Shown piece after piece: positions 18,060-26,204 of a DNA stretch of 64,000 nt (within the stretch, counting starts at the first letter, position 1; the number at the start of each line of letters is the position of its first letter). The DNA lies in the NCBI RefSeq assembly GCF_000381065.1, contig NZ_KB905847.1, positions 1-64,000 on the forward strand, in the 5' to 3' direction. The stretch comes from Propionispira raffinosivorans DSM 20765 (GTDB lineage Bacteria > Bacillota > Negativicutes > Selenomonadales > Selenomonadaceae). A program made the position numbers and the translations under genes. The notes beneath the pieces are model-generated. The model did no database searches. It had not been told where the DNA came from and was given only the letters and a program-made list of their open reading frames with translations.

Positions 18060-20216
18060 ATGAAACATTTCAAAATTGCTTATGGACCTGAAGCTAAAAA
18101 GTATTTTACTACGGAACGGGATTTGGTAGAGGCAGGGCAGACGGATTATACCGATGTGGCTGCCATTGTTCTTACGAGTGAAGAAACAAGCTATGCCAAG
18201 GCCGTTCAGGATACGAAGTTTGGTATTCCACTCTTTATCGTACTGGTCAAAGATGTTCCCTTGGAAGAAGCTTTCGTGGGAAGGGTTTATCATGTGATGG
18301 ATACGACGCATTTTGATCTGCGTCTTTACAGCCGTCAGATTGAAGCGGCGGCTGTTTTATATGAAGAAAAAGTATTACCGCCTTTTTTCAAGGCGTTGAG
18401 TGAATATGTAGAAAGCGGCAATGCGGCGTTTGACTGTCCAGGTCATCAAGGCGGGCAGTTTTTCCGCAAACATCCGGCAGGACGTTATCTTTACGAGTTT
18501 TATGGCGAAAACCTATTTCGATCCGATATCTGCAATGCAGATGTGAAACTGGGCGACCTTTTGATTCATGAAGGATTTGCCTGCGAAGCCCAAAAGCAAG
18601 CCGCACAAGTATTTAATGCGGATAAGACATATTTTGTTTTAAATGGCACGTCAGCCTCCAATAAGGTTGTAACCAATGCCTTGCTCTCTCCGGGCGATTT
18701 GGTTTTATTTGATCGCAATAATCATAAATCCATCCATCAGGGAGCTTTGACACAAGCGGGTGCTATACCGATTTATCTGGAAACAGCACGAAATCCGTTT
18801 GGCTTTATCGGCGGGATTGACAGCCACTGCTTTGATGAAACGTATTTGCGTGAGCAGATTGCCAAAGTTGCGCCACGCAAAACAAAAGAAAAACGACCTT
18901 TCCGCTTGGCGGTTATCCAGCTCGGCACGTATGATGGAACGATTTATAACGCCCGACAGGTCGTCGATAAAATCGGTTCTCTATGCGATTATATTTTGTT
19001 TGATTCAGCCTGGGTCGGCTATGAACAGTTTATTCCTATGATGAAAGACTGCTCACCACTTTTATTGACGCTGACAAAAGATGATCCGGGTATTATTGTA
19101 ACACAATCCGTTCATAAACAGCAGGCCGGATTTTCGCAGGCCTCACAGATTCATAAGAAAGACAGCCATATAAAAGGGCAGAAACGATACTGCGACCACA
19201 AGCGCTTTAACAATGCGTTTATGCTTCATGCCTCGACGAGCCCATTCTATCCGCTTTTTGCAACCTTAGATGTGAATGCGAAGATTCACGCTGGTGAAGC
19301 TGGGCGCAAACTATGGATGAGCTGTGTAAAAATGGGGATTGAAGCGAGAAAAGCATTATTAAAGAATTGTTCGATGATTCAGCCGTTTATTCCTTTAATG
19401 GTAAACGGGAAAAAATGGCAGGATTATGATACCGATGAAATGGCAAATGATTTGGAGTTCTTTAACTTTCACCCTGGTGAAAAATGGCATTCGTTTGAAG
19501 GCTATGCAGAAAATCAATATTTTGTCGATCCCTGCAAATTAATGCTGACGACACCAGGGATTAAGGTTGATACCGGGGAATATGATACGTTCGGTATTCC
19601 GGCGACCATCTTAGCGAATTATTTGCGTGAAAACGGGATTATTCCGGAAAAATGCGATTTGAATTCCATTTTATTTTTACTGACACCAGCAGAAACTTCG
19701 ACGAAATTGCAAAACCTTGTATCGCAAATTGCTCGTTTTGAAATTGCTATTAAGGAAGATTTGCCGCTGAGTGAAGTATTGCCAACCGTTTATAAAAATA
19801 ATATGGATCGGTATGCAGGCTATACAATCCGTGCTTTATGTCAGGAAATGCATGATTTTTATAAGGAAAACAATGTAAAGAATTTGCAACGGGATTTATT
19901 CCGCAGTAAAACGTTACCACGGACAGCAATCAGCGCCCAGGAAGCACAATGGGCTTTAATTCGCAATGAAGCGGAACTTGTACCATTGACGCATATTGTG
20001 GATCGTGTTGCCTTGGAAGGAGCTCTACCATATCCGCCAGGCATTATCTGCGTTGTACCGGGTGAACGCTGGAATAAAACGGCACAGCATTATTTCTTGA
20101 CGCTGGAAGCCGGAATTAATGACTTCCCAGGGTTTGCGCCTGAAATTCAAGGGGTCTATCTGCAACAAGCTGGAAATCTGATTAAAGGGTATGGCTATGT
20201 ATTGAAAAAGGATTGA
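18060..20216 (+). CDS. speF: ornithine decarboxylase, inducible type
   Basis: The protein has 718 residues, with AGGAGG before ATG 18060. It is a PLP-dependent group III decarboxylase with an N-terminal wing (1-110), a large core with FDCPGHQGGQFFRKHPAG, VLNGTSASNKVV, FDSAWVGYEQF and the PLP lysine K353 in QSVHKQQAGFSQ, then a C-terminal domain ending in PFPPG-like YPPGIICVVPGERW. Wording and length match SpeF rather than lysine or arginine decarboxylases. It makes putrescine plus CO2 from ornithine, consuming a proton. With potE downstream it forms an acid-resistance and putrescine export system. The protein is strikingly close to enterobacterial SpeF. Confidence 0.93.
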   Translation: MKHFKIAYGPEAKKYFTTERDLVEAGQTDYTDVAAIVLTSEETSYAKAVQDTKFGIPLFIVLVKDVPLEEAFVGRVYHVMDTTHFDLRLYSRQIEAAAVLYEEKVLPPFFKALSEYVESGNAAFDCPGHQGGQFFRKHPAGRYLYEFYGENLFRSDICNADVKLGDLLIHEGFACEAQKQAAQVFNADKTYFVLNGTSASNKVVTNALLSPGDLVLFDRNNHKSIHQGALTQAGAIPIYLETARNPFGFIGGIDSHCFDETYLREQIAKVAPRKTKEKRPFRLAVIQLGTYDGTIYNARQVVDKIGSLCDYILFDSAWVGYEQFIPMMKDCSPLLLTLTKDDPGIIVTQSVHKQQAGFSQASQIHKKDSHIKGQKRYCDHKRFNNAFMLHASTSPFYPLFATLDVNAKIHAGEAGRKLWMSCVKMGIEARKALLKNCSMIQPFIPLMVNGKKWQDYDTDEMANDLEFFNFHPGEKWHSFEGYAENQYFVDPCKLMLTTPGIKVDTGEYDTFGIPATILANYLRENGIIPEKCDLNSILFLLTPAETSTKLQNLVSQIARFEIAIKEDLPLSEVLPTVYKNNMDRYAGYTIRALCQEMHDFYKENNVKNLQRDLFRSKTLPRTAISAQEAQWALIRNEAELVPLTHIVDRVALEGALPYPPGIICVVPGERWNKTAQHYFLTLEAGINDFPGFAPEIQGVYLQQAGNLIKGYGYVLKKD

Positions 20217-21711: not shown

Positions 21712-21767
21712 CTATCTAATAGAGACGATAGATGTAGAAAAAAAGATTGTTAATAATATAAAATGAA

Positions 21768-21796
21768 TTTTGTCCCTAATATTGATTTTTTGTCCC
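21768..21796 (+). promoter_or_regulatory. direct repeats TTTTGTCCC, candidate operator
   Basis: TTTTGTCCC occurs at 21768-21776 and again at 21788-21796, a spacing of 20 bases (two helical turns), just upstream of the AAA+ gene. The first gene product has a C-terminal helix-turn-helix and could bind here. That link is inferred. Confidence 0.4.
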
Positions 21797-21829
21797 AGGT
21801 GTGGTAGTCTATATTTGGAGGTGATTATA

Positions 21830-22867
21830 ATGAAAAAAAAGAATGTTTTAAACTTAATAAAATATTATGCCGAAAAAAATGATGCCGCTTTTAGAAATGA
21901 AGCATATGAAATAGCAAGATATTTTGATGAAATAAATAATTATCAACTTTCTGAGTATATTATGGCGCTTTTGTCAGACACAAACACGTTTTCTCCGCAA
22001 ATGGATGAGACTAAACATATATTTTTTAACCGAATAGATATTAACACGGATTCGCTTCCCTTACCGGATCGTATAAAAGATAGTGTTTTAGGCATTGTAA
22101 ATGCAGTTAGTCGTAATGCAGGAGTCAACAAGTTTTTGTTTGAAGGACCTCCAGGAACCGGAAAAACAGAGACTGCAAAACAAATAGCACGCATACTTGA
22201 AAGAGAGTTATTTGTAGTTGATTTTGATTCGGTTATCGATAGCAAACTTGGACAAACATCTAAAAATATAGCAAGTCTTTTCGATGAAATTCGTAATGTA
22301 TCACATCCAGAAAAAGTTATAGTTTTGTTTGATGAGATAGATGCTATAGCTATTGACAGAATTAATTCGAATGATTTGCGTGAAATGGGTAGAGCCACTT
22401 CTTCAGTATTAAAAGGGTTAGACAGCTTAAATGATAATATAGTGTTAATTGCAACTACTAATTTATATAAGTCGTTTGATAAAGCATTAATAAGAAGATT
22501 TGATTCTGTCATAGATTTCAGCAGCTATACTCAAGACGATTTAATGGATATTGGCGAGATCATATTAAATGAATTATTAATAAAATTCAAATCTGCTGGT
22601 AGGAATATAAGGCTGTTCAGAAAAATCCTTAGTTGTATGAGTCAAATTCCTTATCCTGGTGAGTTGAAAAATCTTATAAAAACTTCATTAGCTTTTAGTG
22701 CTCCTAATAATGAGTATGACTACCTAAAAAGGTTCTATCATGCTGTAAATAAACATATTGCAGAAACTGATTTAAAGGATATGCAAAATAGAGGCTTTAC
22801 AGTTAGAGAAATTGAAATTTTAACGGGTGTTTCTAAAAGTCAGGTATCTCGAGAATTAAAGGAGTAA
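21830..22867 (+). CDS. AAA+ ATPase with C-terminal helix-turn-helix
   Basis: The protein has 345 residues. ATG 21830 follows GGAGGTGA; the in-frame ATG at 21770 has no ribosome binding site. A helical N-terminal part (1-90) is followed by an AAA+ core: Walker A GPPGTGKT (106-113), Walker B VIVLFDEIDA with Asp168/Glu169, sensor-1 NIVLIATTN and arginine-finger-like LIRRFD. The last ~35 residues read GFTVREIEILTGVSKSQVSR, a helix-turn-helix unusual for this class. The gene is AT-rich relative to speF-potE. The stop overlaps the ribosome binding site of the protease gene, so the two are coupled. It probably remodels or delivers substrates to the protease. Confidence 0.85.
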   Translation: MKKKNVLNLIKYYAEKNDAAFRNEAYEIARYFDEINNYQLSEYIMALLSDTNTFSPQMDETKHIFFNRIDINTDSLPLPDRIKDSVLGIVNAVSRNAGVNKFLFEGPPGTGKTETAKQIARILERELFVVDFDSVIDSKLGQTSKNIASLFDEIRNVSHPEKVIVLFDEIDAIAIDRINSNDLREMGRATSSVLKGLDSLNDNIVLIATTNLYKSFDKALIRRFDSVIDFSSYTQDDLMDIGEIILNELLIKFKSAGRNIRLFRKILSCMSQIPYPGELKNLIKTSLAFSAPNNEYDYLKRFYHAVNKHIAETDLKDMQNRGFTVREIEILTGVSKSQVSRELKE

Positions 22868-22873
22868 TTGCAA

Positions 22874-25123
22874 ATGAATAATTTATTACAACTAAAGGGA
22901 ACCTTTGAACAAGCCTCAAGTGATTCAAGACCAGGCGCATCGAATCTACCATCTGGAAAATCTGTTAAATTTTCACAATTAGAACAACTTAAAAAAAATT
23001 TAGAGGAATTAAAAATTTTTTGGTCAAAGGAAAATATATTTTCTGGAGCATTGATTAGCGTGTACTATAATAAAGTTGCAGCTAAAAGCAATAGGATACA
23101 AGGTTTATTATCGAAAAGTAGTATTACCGCAAATAGCTCTATTGTTGGTGCAAGATTTACAAATGTTGAATCTCCAAAACACATAATTACACATTATGTT
23201 TCTATGGAAATAATAGATGAGTCAATTGAGCGCTTAAATATATGTATTAACATATTAAATGAAAATTTTGATGGGACAATAACCTACGATATAATAAAAA
23301 AAATAAACTCAAATCAAAGGTCCTTTGTTTCATCAAAGATTGCAAAAACAAAGTTTCTTAAAGTGATAGTAGATGCTTTTTATGTTGAAAAATTCGATGT
23401 ATTAGTTGATGATATAGATTTAAAAGATAAATCCATTATCACTATATATAAAACAGATGTTAAAACAAAAGAACTTATGGAAAAATTGGGCATCAGTTTA
23501 CAGTTTACTAGAGTTATGGACGATACGACTATTTTATTGCGACCAGATGAATTTGCTCTTTTAAAACAAAAAGCACCATATTTAATATCTATGGCGGTTA
23601 GTGACATAACACAATTAAGTAAAGTTGATTTTGACTTTTGTGATAATGCTGTAATCTCTATTCCTTCCCCTGGAAATGAACCTACTATAGGTGTAATCGA
23701 TACTATGTTTGATGAAAATGTTTATTTTTCCGAATGGGTTAAATTTACAAATGTCTTGTCTGAAGACATTCCACTATCACCAAGCGACTATAAACATGGA
23801 ACCGCGGTATCATCTATTATAGTAGATGGTCCGTCATCTAATCCTCATATGGATGATGGCTGCGGTAGATTTCGTGTAAGACATTTTGGTGTTGCTGCCG
23901 GAAATCAGTTTAGTTCATTTACAATTTTAAGAAATATAGATGAAATAATATCGTCAAACAAAGATATTAAAGTTTGGAATTTATCACTTGGATCTAAATT
24001 GGAGATAAATCCGAATTTTATTTCACCTGAAGCGGCAATGTTAGACAAAATTCAATATGAAAATGAGGTGATATTTATTATTGCCGGAACTAATAATAAT
24101 GCAACAGAAAAAGAACCTAAAGCTATTGGCGCTCCGGCGGACTCTATCAATTCTTTGGTTGTTAATTCTGTTAATTTTGACAATCAACCTGCCTCATATA
24201 CCCGAAAGGGGCCAGTATTATCATTTTTCACAAAACCTGATATTAGCTATTATGGTGGGGATGGAAAGAATCTTATGAGCGTTTGCACTCCAACAGGTGA
24301 AGCTTTTGTGAAAGGAACTTCTTTTTCAGCTCCATGGATATCAAGGAAAATGTCTTACTTAATCGATATTTTAGGTTTAAGTAGAGAAGTATCAAAAGCA
24401 TTAATAATTAATTCAGCAACTGGTTGGGAAAAACAGAAAATAGATATTTCGCTTATCGGGCATGGCATAGTTCCTCTGAAAATAGATGATGTCGTTCGTT
24501 GTCCAGATGATGAAATACAATTTGTTTTATCGGGTGTTTCAGAAAAGTATGATACTTATAACTATAATATTCCGGTACCGGTAAGTAAGGATAAACATCC
24601 ATTTGTCGCAAAAGCCACTTTATGCTATTTCCCCTGTTGTTCTCGAAACCAAGGTGTTGATTACACGAACACAGAACTTGATATATCGTTTGGCAGATTA
24701 AATAAAGATGGAATAAAATCAATAAATAATAATTATCAAAGTGCTAAAACGGAATGTTTTACATGGGAAGAAGACGCTAGAAAATTGTTCCGAAAATGGG
24801 ATAATATAAAACATATTCGTGAAGTATTTACACAAAAAAATCGTCCAAAGACTGCTTATGATAAAGGTCTTTGGGGAATAAGTTTAAAAACAAAAGAACG
24901 CTTGGATAAAAAATATGGAGCAGGTATAAAGTTTGGCATCGTAGTAACTTTAAAAGAAATAAATGGTGTTAATCGAATTGATGATTTTATAAAAAATTGT
25001 TCGCTTAGGGGTTGGCTTGTAAATAAAATTGATGTCGAAAATAGAATTGATATTTATAATATTGCTGAAGAAAAAATTAATTTTAACGATTTTGATGCTA
25101 TGCCAAGAAAAAGCACAAACTAG
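22874..25123 (+). CDS. subtilisin-like (S8) serine protease, AAA-coupled
   Basis: The protein has 749 residues. ATG 22874 lies nine bases behind AAAGGAG, which sits in the end of the AAA gene. There is no signal peptide, so the protease is cytoplasmic. Residues 1-270 are an unrecognised helical/mixed region, perhaps inhibitory or substrate-binding. The S8 core follows: Asp276 in TIGVIDT, His308 in KHGTAVSSI, oxyanion Asn near 407 in AGTNNN and Ser483 in GTSFSAPW. The whole triad is present. A ~230-residue C-terminal part is unassigned. AAA+/subtilase pairs are seen in accessory islands and are suspected of a conflict or defence role; that is an inference here. Confidence 0.85.
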   Translation: MNNLLQLKGTFEQASSDSRPGASNLPSGKSVKFSQLEQLKKNLEELKIFWSKENIFSGALISVYYNKVAAKSNRIQGLLSKSSITANSSIVGARFTNVESPKHIITHYVSMEIIDESIERLNICINILNENFDGTITYDIIKKINSNQRSFVSSKIAKTKFLKVIVDAFYVEKFDVLVDDIDLKDKSIITIYKTDVKTKELMEKLGISLQFTRVMDDTTILLRPDEFALLKQKAPYLISMAVSDITQLSKVDFDFCDNAVISIPSPGNEPTIGVIDTMFDENVYFSEWVKFTNVLSEDIPLSPSDYKHGTAVSSIIVDGPSSNPHMDDGCGRFRVRHFGVAAGNQFSSFTILRNIDEIISSNKDIKVWNLSLGSKLEINPNFISPEAAMLDKIQYENEVIFIIAGTNNNATEKEPKAIGAPADSINSLVVNSVNFDNQPASYTRKGPVLSFFTKPDISYYGGDGKNLMSVCTPTGEAFVKGTSFSAPWISRKMSYLIDILGLSREVSKALIINSATGWEKQKIDISLIGHGIVPLKIDDVVRCPDDEIQFVLSGVSEKYDTYNYNIPVPVSKDKHPFVAKATLCYFPCCSRNQGVDYTNTELDISFGRLNKDGIKSINNNYQSAKTECFTWEEDARKLFRKWDNIKHIREVFTQKNRPKTAYDKGLWGISLKTKERLDKKYGAGIKFGIVVTLKEINGVNRIDDFIKNCSLRGWLVNKIDVENRIDIYNIAEEKINFNDFDAMPRKSTN

Positions 25124-25183
25124 ACAGAGTATCCATTGAATGGTAACCGTTTCATAAGGTAGTGGATAGCAACCTTCTATTTA

Positions 25184-25251
25184 GAAGGCTGCTTCCTAAA
25201 CTTTTCAGCAAGGTAATAAAATCCGCTGTACCGTTGACGGCTATGCTGATT
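25184..25251 (+). repeat. 68-bp fragment of potE
   Basis: The segment from GAAGGCTGCTTCCTAAAC to GACGGCTATGCTGATT matches potE 21210-21278 with one gap and a handful of substitutions. No reading frame uses it. Together with potE it brackets the AAA/protease module. Its end provides TTGACG, the -35 box of the next promoter. Confidence 0.85.
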
Positions 25252-25262
25252 CTTGATATAAT
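25234..25262 (+). promoter_or_regulatory. sigma-70-type promoter of the fluoride operon
   Basis: TTGACG (25234-25239), a 17-base spacer and TATAAT (25257-25262) form an excellent promoter. The -35 box lies inside the potE-derived fragment; the -10 lies outside it. Confidence 0.8.
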
Positions 25263-25275
25263 CAATTCAATCTCT

Positions 25276-25333
25276 TATAGGCGATGGAGTTCGCCATAAA
25301 TTTGTTCGGTGAACAATGATGACTCCTACCATT
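25276..25333 (+). ncRNA. fluoride riboswitch (crcB motif)
   Basis: GGCGATGGAGTTCGCC, then ATAAA, and finally TGATGACTCCTACC fit the conserved elements of the crcB/fluoride aptamer in the right order and spacing. It lies about 14 bases after the -10 box and ahead of DUF190 and crcB genes, the standard target. The 3' aptamer strand GACTCCTACC is also the 5' arm of the terminator that follows, so fluoride binding should block termination. Confidence 0.88.
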
Positions 25334-25361
25334 TTTCTAAATGGTAGGAGTCTATTTTTTT
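25321..25361 (+). terminator. riboswitch-controlled terminator
   Basis: GACTCCTACCATTT and AAATGGTAGGAGTC form a perfect 14-bp stem, then CTATTTTTTTT. It overlaps the aptamer's 3' strand as an expression platform. Confidence 0.88.
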
Positions 25362-25470: not shown

Positions 25471-25806
25471 ATGGCTGCTATTAAAAAATGTGCGAAACGG
25501 TTACGGATTTATATCGGTGAAACCGATCATTATGACCGCATTGTAAAAAAAGCCAAGGAGCTTGATATGGCAGGGGTTACGGTTTTTCGTGGGATTATGG
25601 GTTATGGTGAAAACAATCGGCAAATTCGGTCGGCAAAGTTGGTGGAGCTATCCTGTGATTTGCCAATTGTGATTGAAATTATCGACAGTGAGGAATATAT
25701 TGATAAATTCATGCCGCATTTGGATACGCTTGTGCAAAAAGGTATGATTACGATTGATGATGTTAAAGTTTTAAAATATGGGAAGCAACTTCCTGGGCAT
25801 GAATAA
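25471..25806 (+). CDS. DUF190 family protein of the fluoride operon
   Basis: The protein has 111 residues, with AGGAGGG before ATG 25471. RLRIYIGETDHYDRIVKKAK, GVTVFRGIMGYGEN and LPIVIEIIDSEEYIDKFMPH are the DUF190 signature, a PII-like ferredoxin fold often coupled to crcB. It is cytoplasmic and possibly a regulatory subunit of the fluoride channel. It ends two bases before the crcB ribosome binding site, so the two are one operon under the fluoride riboswitch. Confidence 0.88.
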   Translation: MAAIKKCAKRLRIYIGETDHYDRIVKKAKELDMAGVTVFRGIMGYGENNRQIRSAKLVELSCDLPIVIEIIDSEEYIDKFMPHLDTLVQKGMITIDDVKVLKYGKQLPGHE

Positions 25807-25820
25807 AGGTGGGGTCAGTG

Positions 25821-26204
25821 GTGTTTAGTATCGATCAGATTTTAATTGTTTTATTTGGCGGGGGCTGCGGTGCGGTGGCACGTTATGTTTTAACAACGTG
25901 GATTGCCAGTAAATATGGGGCATATTTTCCGTTTGGTACCTTGTTTGTTAATGTAGCGGGATGTTTTGTTATGGGCTTTTTTATGATGCTGACGACGGAT
26001 CGTTTTACAGTGTCGACCAATCTGAGACTTTTGGTTACGGTTGGATTTTTGGGTGGGTTAACAACGTTTTCTTCTTTTGGTTACGAAACGATGCAGTTTT
26101 TACGCGAGGGTGATTTAGTGAACGCGTTTATGAATATGGGAGCCAATTTATGTATCGGCTTACTTGCTCTGTGGCTGGGAATTCTCACGGCGAAGTTCAT
26201 ATGA
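25821..26204 (+). CDS. crcB: fluoride ion channel CrcB/Fluc
   Basis: The protein has 127 residues. GTG 25821 is best spaced from GGTGGGG; GTG 25809 and 25818 are in frame but poorly placed. Four helices carry the family marks GGGCGAVARY, FPFGTLFVNVAGCFVMGF and GFLGGLTTFSSFGYE, the last with the Phe/Ser/Thr residues of the pore. It acts as a dual-topology dimer exporting fluoride passively across the inner membrane. The riboswitch upstream confirms the ligand. Confidence 0.93.
   Translation: MFSIDQILIVLFGGGCGAVARYVLTTWIASKYGAYFPFGTLFVNVAGCFVMGFFMMLTTDRFTVSTNLRLLVTVGFLGGLTTFSSFGYETMQFLREGDLVNAFMNMGANLCIGLLALWLGILTAKFI

What the first reader, a model, noticed from the sequence alone, without database searches (positions are those of the whole stretch)
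21768..25123. AT-rich AAA+ ATPase / subtilisin-like protease module, a candidate defence or protein-quality system
Seen: a complete AAA+ core with an added C-terminal helix-turn-helix, coupled to a cytoplasmic 749-residue S8 protease with a full Asp-His-Ser triad, large unassigned N- and C-terminal parts and direct repeats TTTTGTCCC upstream. Base composition differs from speF-potE and potE sequence occurs on both sides. Inference: a horizontally acquired module in which a DNA-binding ATPase controls a protease, plausibly abortive defence. I know of no characterised system with exactly this arrangement.
Basis: partly seen in the sequence, partly recalled or inferred. Interest (0 to 1): 0.72.

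Follow-up and report, generated by a model that had tools for sequence, protein, structure and literature searches.

The report
IetAS toxin–antitoxin/phage-defence pair with own operator
This is a mobile two-gene toxin–antitoxin/anti-phage cassette of a known family (IetAS: an ATPase and an intracellular protease), and comparing it with relatives suggests something apparently unreported: the ATPase carries a DNA-binding tail matched to repeated DNA words at its own promoter, so it probably switches its own genes.

Summary
ietA is window 21830-22867 (ATG with a good ribosome-binding site, not the upstream TTG) and ietS is 22874-25123. Both match the IetAS family (PADLOC IetA E=1e-43, IetS E=1.5e-61). 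IetAS is known: a toxin–antitoxin pair on pTiC58 (2009), SGI1 and in mycoplasmas, later listed as anti-phage. The pair is a mobile cassette: a same-genus genome has other genes exactly there, and all 25 close relatives from several phyla keep ietS directly behind ietA.

The new part came from the TTTTGTCCC repeats. In 33 of 37 members of this clade two TGTCCC words lie 20-21 bp apart at the ietA promoter (background: 1 hit in 696 kb). The exact pair occurs once in the host genome. Other IetA branches with a C-terminal helix-turn-helix often have different promoter repeats, mostly at about 21 or 10 bp, and these follow the recognition helix rather than overall relatedness. Best reading: IetA is antitoxin for the S8 protease and autoregulator of its operon. 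Protease target, trigger and regulatory sign are unknown. The locus is a new member of a known kind; the operator/HTH covariation is the interesting result.

The parts
21768..21776 (+). First operator-like repeat TTTTGTCCC, just upstream of the -35-like TTGATT (21782-21787)
   Evidence: exact TTGTCCC-N13-TTGTCCC pair occurs once in the 4.13 Mb genome
21788..21796 (+). Second operator-like repeat TTTTGTCCC, 20 bp from the first, inside the -35/-10 spacer
21782..21810 (+). Probable ietA promoter (TTGATT, 17 bp, TAGTCT; weak by consensus, inferred from alignment with relatives whose -35/-10 are TTGAC/TATAAT)
   Evidence: the consensus scan did not list it
21830..22867 (+). ietA: AAA+ ATPase, 345 aa, putative antitoxin and autoregulator
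   Evidence: PADLOC IetA E=1.3e-43, residues 6-344; Pfam AAA E=3e-26; AlphaFold pLDDT 85
22145..22168 (+). Walker A GPPGTGKT of IetA
   Evidence: nearly invariant in A1
22331..22336 (+). Walker B Asp168-Glu169 of IetA
   Evidence: invariant in A1
22772..22861 (+). C-terminal helix-turn-helix of IetA (GFTVREIEILTGVSKSQVSRELKE)
   Evidence: weak HTH_23/MarR_2 matches only
22874..25123 (+). ietS: intracellular S8 protease, 749 aa, putative toxin/effector
   Evidence: PADLOC IetS E=1.5e-61; Pfam Peptidase_S8 E=4.5e-32; fold like KP-43 and other subtilases
23699..23701 (+). Catalytic Asp276 of IetS
23795..23797 (+). Catalytic His308 of IetS
24320..24322 (+). Catalytic Ser483 of IetS (GTSFSAP)
21713..25226 (.). 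Cassette extent: stretch absent from same-genus genome G001, which has 2.28 kb of unrelated genes between the same flanks

Best explanation
The locus is an IetAS operon. IetS is an intracellular subtilisin-like protease that is toxic when free. IetA is an AAA+ ATPase that restrains it (antitoxin) and also binds two TGTCCC words 20 bp apart around the -35 box of its own promoter through its C-terminal helix-turn-helix, holding the operon down. When infection, or loss of the genes, lowers free IetA or alters its state, the promoter is released and IetS cleaves cell or phage proteins, giving growth arrest or death: abortive defence and self-maintenance. Shown here: gene pair, family, conserved catalytic residues, mobility, and comparative evidence for HTH/operator pairing. 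Shown by others for relatives: protease toxin, ATPase antitoxin. Inferred: DNA binding, its sign (repression), trigger and targets.
For: Family matches, nearly full length for IetA. ietS directly behind ietA in all 25 relatives, 63-90% IetA identity, from Bacillota, Campylobacterota, Elusimicrobiota, Patescibacteria, Methanosphaera and others. TGTCCC pair at 20-21 bp with at most 2 mismatches in 33/37 promoters; background 1 in 696 kb; unique in own genome. Nonredundant set: 20/21-bp repeat at p<0.05 in 23/40 HTH-bearing against 4/17 HTH-less IetA (Fisher p=0.023, Mann-Whitney p=0.002). At least two TGTCC words in 13/19 IetA with a KS recognition helix, 0/38 others (p=1e-8). L124 (PKS, TGTCCA) and L122 (HS, TGTACGA) are 50% identical yet differ in word; L124 and the window are 28% identical yet share TGTCC and KS. 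Fresh relatives fetched afterwards mostly repeated their subfamily's word and spacing (L174, L176-L178, L181). TA function of relatives: PMC5006074, PMC8562856.
Against: No DNA binding, repression, toxicity or phage protection has been tested for this locus. Sequences within a clade are related, so p-values overstate independence; the KS/TGTCC rule rests on three deep branches. Subfamily words were found by inspection after the pattern was noticed. 4 of 17 HTH-less promoters also reach p<0.05. Some HTH-bearing IetA show no clear repeat (L120, L014, L180, L182); L044-L046 lost the TGTCCC pair although their HTH is only slightly changed. Arrays upstream of -35 in the TAACG branch fit activation as well as repression.
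Confidence: 0.68

Rival explanations
1. Plain IetAS in which the HTH is not an autoregulator but a sensor: IetA binds phage or plasmid DNA through it and switches IetS on; the promoter repeats serve another, host regulator.
For: IetAS is listed among anti-phage systems; HTH proteins can act as DNA sensors (general knowledge).
Against: The words travel with the operon across phyla and follow the recognition helix of IetA; HTH-less or HTH-broken members (L050-L053) lack them. A host regulator is unlikely to be shared by Patescibacteria, Campylobacterota and Bacillota.
Confidence: 0.15
2. Addiction module only: ietAS stabilises the mobile segment (as pTiC58 IetAS and SGI1 SgiAT do) and has no role against phages in this host.
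For: TA function is the directly demonstrated activity in relatives (PMC5006074, PMC8562856); relatives sit on plasmids and prophages.
Against: The window copy is a small chromosomal cassette without integrase or plasmid genes inside it; family members are placed among anti-phage systems and neighbours of relatives include defence genes. The two roles are not exclusive.
Confidence: 0.2
3. Housekeeping protein quality control: the AAA+ feeds misfolded substrates to the protease, as in proteasome- or Clp-like machines.
For: Fold search matches proteasomal ATPases, TRIP13 and Vps4-like AAA proteins.
Against: Patchy, mobile distribution: one close orthologue in 120 related genomes and replacement at the locus in the same genus. 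AAA fold similarity is generic.
Confidence: 0.04

Closest known systems
IetAS (PADLOC/NCBIfam anti-phage family; first described as pTiC58 toxin-antitoxin, Yamamoto 2009)
   Same: Gene order AAA+ then S8 protease, sizes, both family profiles, mobile context
   Different: Far below the NCBIfam equivalog cut-offs (IteA 122/510 bits, IteS 146/900 bits), so a distant member; HTH tail with matched TGTCCC operator
SgiAT of Salmonella Genomic Island 1 (PMC5006074)
   Same: AAA+ antitoxin and subtilase toxin, two-gene operon
   Different: Its authors infer that its own promoter needs positive activation; an HTH-less Klebsiella family member (L053) lacks the repeats
Mycoplasma T133/A132 toxin-antitoxin (PMC8562856)
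   Same: AAA+ antitoxin neutralises S8 protease toxin in E. coli and M. capricolum; the M. hyorhinis member L051 has 48% IetA identity to the window
   Different: In L051 the HTH is degenerate and the operator absent
Antitoxins that autorepress through a DNA-binding domain (type II TA; AbiEi) and RptR, which represses a defence island through direct repeats (PMC12255303)
   Same: Defence/TA operon controlled through repeats at its promoter
   Different: Here the DNA-binding part is fused to an AAA+ ATPase and the repeats are one or two helical turns apart; binding not yet shown

Membership tests
IetAS | AAA+ ATPase matching IetA profiles | tested here: met
   PDLC02196 E=1.3e-43 over 6-344; NCBIfam IteA best hit but below equivalog cut-off
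IetAS | Adjacent S8 protease matching IetS profiles | tested here: met
   PDLC02197 E=1.5e-61; adjacency in all 25 relatives
IetAS | Intact Walker motifs and Asp-His-Ser triad | tested here: met
NCBIfam IteA/IteS equivalog group | Score above the equivalog cut-offs | tested here: not met
   121.7 of 510 bits and 146.4 of 900 bits: a distant IetAS member, not of this equivalog group
IetAS | Protection against phages | not testable with these tools
   needs plaque assays
Type II toxin-antitoxin | Toxin neutralised by protein antitoxin | not testable with these tools
   shown for relatives only (PMC5006074, PMC8562856)
Type II toxin-antitoxin | Antitoxin has DNA-binding domain and operator at own promoter | tested here: inconclusive
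   HTH and conserved covarying repeats; binding not tested
Housekeeping AAA+ protease | Conserved core-genome position | tested here: not met

The most novel reading that the evidence does not exclude
Across the IetAS family, IetA with a C-terminal helix-turn-helix is a self-regulating AAA+ antitoxin: each branch has its own operator word repeated about one or two helical turns apart at its promoter, read by the matching recognition helix (KS: TGTCC; H[ST]: TGTACG; RQVRN/LRK: AACG or ACGT; STV[NH]HH: TTCGA), while HTH-less members rely on other control. The protease brake and the transcription switch are then the same protein, so whatever disturbs IetA would both free the protease and derepress the operon.
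Probability: 0.6. Interest if true: 0.62.

Novelty: new member of a known kind. Interest (0 to 1): 0.5.

Why it matters
How IetAS works is described as unknown in recent papers (PMC11878078, PMC9958689). If the ATPase is both brake on the protease and reader of its own promoter, the trigger question becomes testable with a simple reporter: what lifts IetA off the operator is a candidate for what frees the protease. The matched set of recognition helices and words is also a natural experiment on how a helix-turn-helix changes specificity.

Tried and rejected
Simple target-site duplication by potE: rejected, G001 has part of the scrap without ietAS. Inhibitor_I9-like propeptide before the IetS catalytic domain: suggested by the strand/helix order at 187-243 in a modest model (pLDDT 69), but Pfam gives no match, so not claimed. 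A viral-contig pattern search with a wrong spacing found nothing, and the first own-genome pattern was also mis-spaced. L054- and L124-type viral scans gave no useful relatives. PADLOC family search over 648 genomes rings in nearly all because FtsH-like AAA proteins match; only full-length, strong hits were used. Defence-island enrichment was only tallied, without a matched control. The primary papers of 2009 and 2020 are not in the library. That the anti-phage listing goes back to a 2020 screen is from my own knowledge.

Full report
WHAT IS THERE. Two + strand genes lie between potE and a DUF190-crcB operon. The first starts at ATG 21830 behind GGAGGTGAT; the TTG start that an ORF list gives at 21770 would place the promoter repeats inside the gene and is not supported by relatives. 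It encodes a 345-residue AAA+ ATPase. The second runs from ATG 22874 to 25123 and encodes a 749-residue S8 protease. G+C falls from about 0.44 to about 0.31 across the pair.

WHICH FAMILY. PADLOC calls them IetA (E=1.3e-43, residues 6-344) and IetS (E=1.5e-61). NCBIfam's anti-phage IteA and IteS are the best hits but far below their equivalog cut-offs: this is a distant member of the family. Walker A/B, sensor and arginine residues, and Asp276-His308-Ser483 are invariant or nearly so in relatives. IetA models well (pLDDT 85) with a C-terminal helix-turn-helix and an AAA core like proteasomal ATPases, Vps4, katanin and TRIP13. IetS models less well (69) with a subtilase fold close to KP-43.

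WHAT THE LITERATURE SAYS. SgiAT of SGI1 and the mycoplasma pair T133/A132 are relatives in which the S8 protease is toxic and the AAA protein neutralises it (also 107). The family is now listed as anti-phage, with unknown mechanism. That the anti-phage listing stems from a 2020 screen is from my own knowledge.

MOBILITY. In 25 genome loci IetA is 63-90% identical and ietS is directly downstream in all, in hosts from Bacillota to Campylobacterota, Elusimicrobiota, Patescibacteria and the archaeon Methanosphaera. Only one of 120 related genomes has a close orthologue (G061, 55%). In G001, same genus, synteny is 96% up to 21712 and 94% from 25227, with 2.28 kb of unrelated genes in between. Plasmid, prophage and phage-encoded members exist. 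Neighbours in related loci include restriction-modification, Schlafen helicase, RloB, Fic, integrase and resolvase genes; no matched control was run.

THE REPEATS. They sit 20 bp apart around the -35-like box. In 37 members of the clade, 33 have two TGTCCC words 20-21 bp apart with at most two mismatches within 150 bp of the start (25 exact); the same pattern with at most one mismatch occurs once in 696 kb (both strands) of the rest of the 25 genome loci. The exact pair is unique in the 4.13 Mb genome. The four exceptions are L041 (Methanosphaera, one clear word only) and the sister group L044-L046.

OTHER BRANCHES. A nonredundant set of 57 IetA was split by whether the protein has the C-terminal HTH. 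A 20/21-bp direct repeat is significant against dinucleotide shuffles in 23 of 40 HTH-bearing and 4 of 17 HTH-less members (Fisher p=0.023). By inspection the words differ by branch: TAACG at 21 bp, up to four exact copies (L113-L118); ACGT at 20-21 bp (L119, L144, L148; in L147 a single copy with a GACGAT partner); TGTACGA at 10 bp (L121, L122); TGTCCA at 10 bp (L124); GTTCT three times at 21 bp (L143); TTCGA with inverted copies (phage Yyerffej L056, L126, L132). Relatives fetched afterwards repeat the word and spacing of their branch: TAAC[AG] in L176-L178 and L181, the TTCGA layout in L174, ACGTTT in L179; Hymenobacter L184 has AGAAACG at 21 bp and Sphingopyxis L183 has AGCCTGACCA at 20 bp, while L180 and L182 show none.

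WORD FOLLOWS HELIX. At least two TGTCC words are found in 13 of 19 promoters of IetA with a KS recognition helix and in 0 of 38 others. L124 (PKS) shares TGTCC with the window although the proteins are 28% identical, and differs from its 50%-identical cousin L122 (HS; TGTACGA). IetA that lost or never had the HTH (L050-L053) lack the TGTCCC pair. This is what an autoregulator would leave; relatedness within clades means the p-values are only a guide.

MECHANISM. Most likely IetA holds the protease and, through its tail, the promoter; disturbing IetA frees both. Shown: anatomy, family, mobility, comparative pairing of helix and word. Known for relatives: toxin and antitoxin roles. Inferred: DNA binding, repression rather than activation, trigger, protease targets.

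VERDICT. The locus is a distant but ordinary member of IetAS. What lifts it above ordinary is the family-wide operator/HTH pairing, which I found in no paper that I could search and which standard assays can test.

Noticed in passing
25182-25262: A 74-bp potE-derived scrap (66/74 identical) supplies the -35 (TTGACG) of an 11/12 sigma-70-like promoter in front of the fluoride riboswitch: a promoter element apparently made from duplicated coding sequence, partly shared with G001.
   Followed up: partly
25271-25335: Fluoride riboswitch (Rfam RF01734, 43.5 bits) ahead of a DUF190/crcB operon (25471-26204).
   Followed up: yes
L050:6001-7005, L052:5001-6005: Ligilactobacillus salivarius plasmids carry a nearly full-length IetA (44-45% identity) without IetS, with truncated HTH and no operator: orphan antitoxin, possibly an anti-addiction or anti-defence gene.
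   Followed up: partly
L056:2638-6050: Paenibacillus phage Yyerffej has an IetA-like ATPase gene followed by a peptidase gene behind its lysis cassette, with TTCGA promoter words.
   Followed up: partly
L044-L046 upstream of ietA: Sister group lost the TGTCCC pair; L044 and L045 show an inverted TGTCAATA...TATTGACA around the promoter.
   Followed up: no
L112 (G000:C2:262000-270000): A second copy of the potE 3' end (300 bp, 92%) lies next to a copy of window 19538-19650 elsewhere in the host genome.
   Followed up: no
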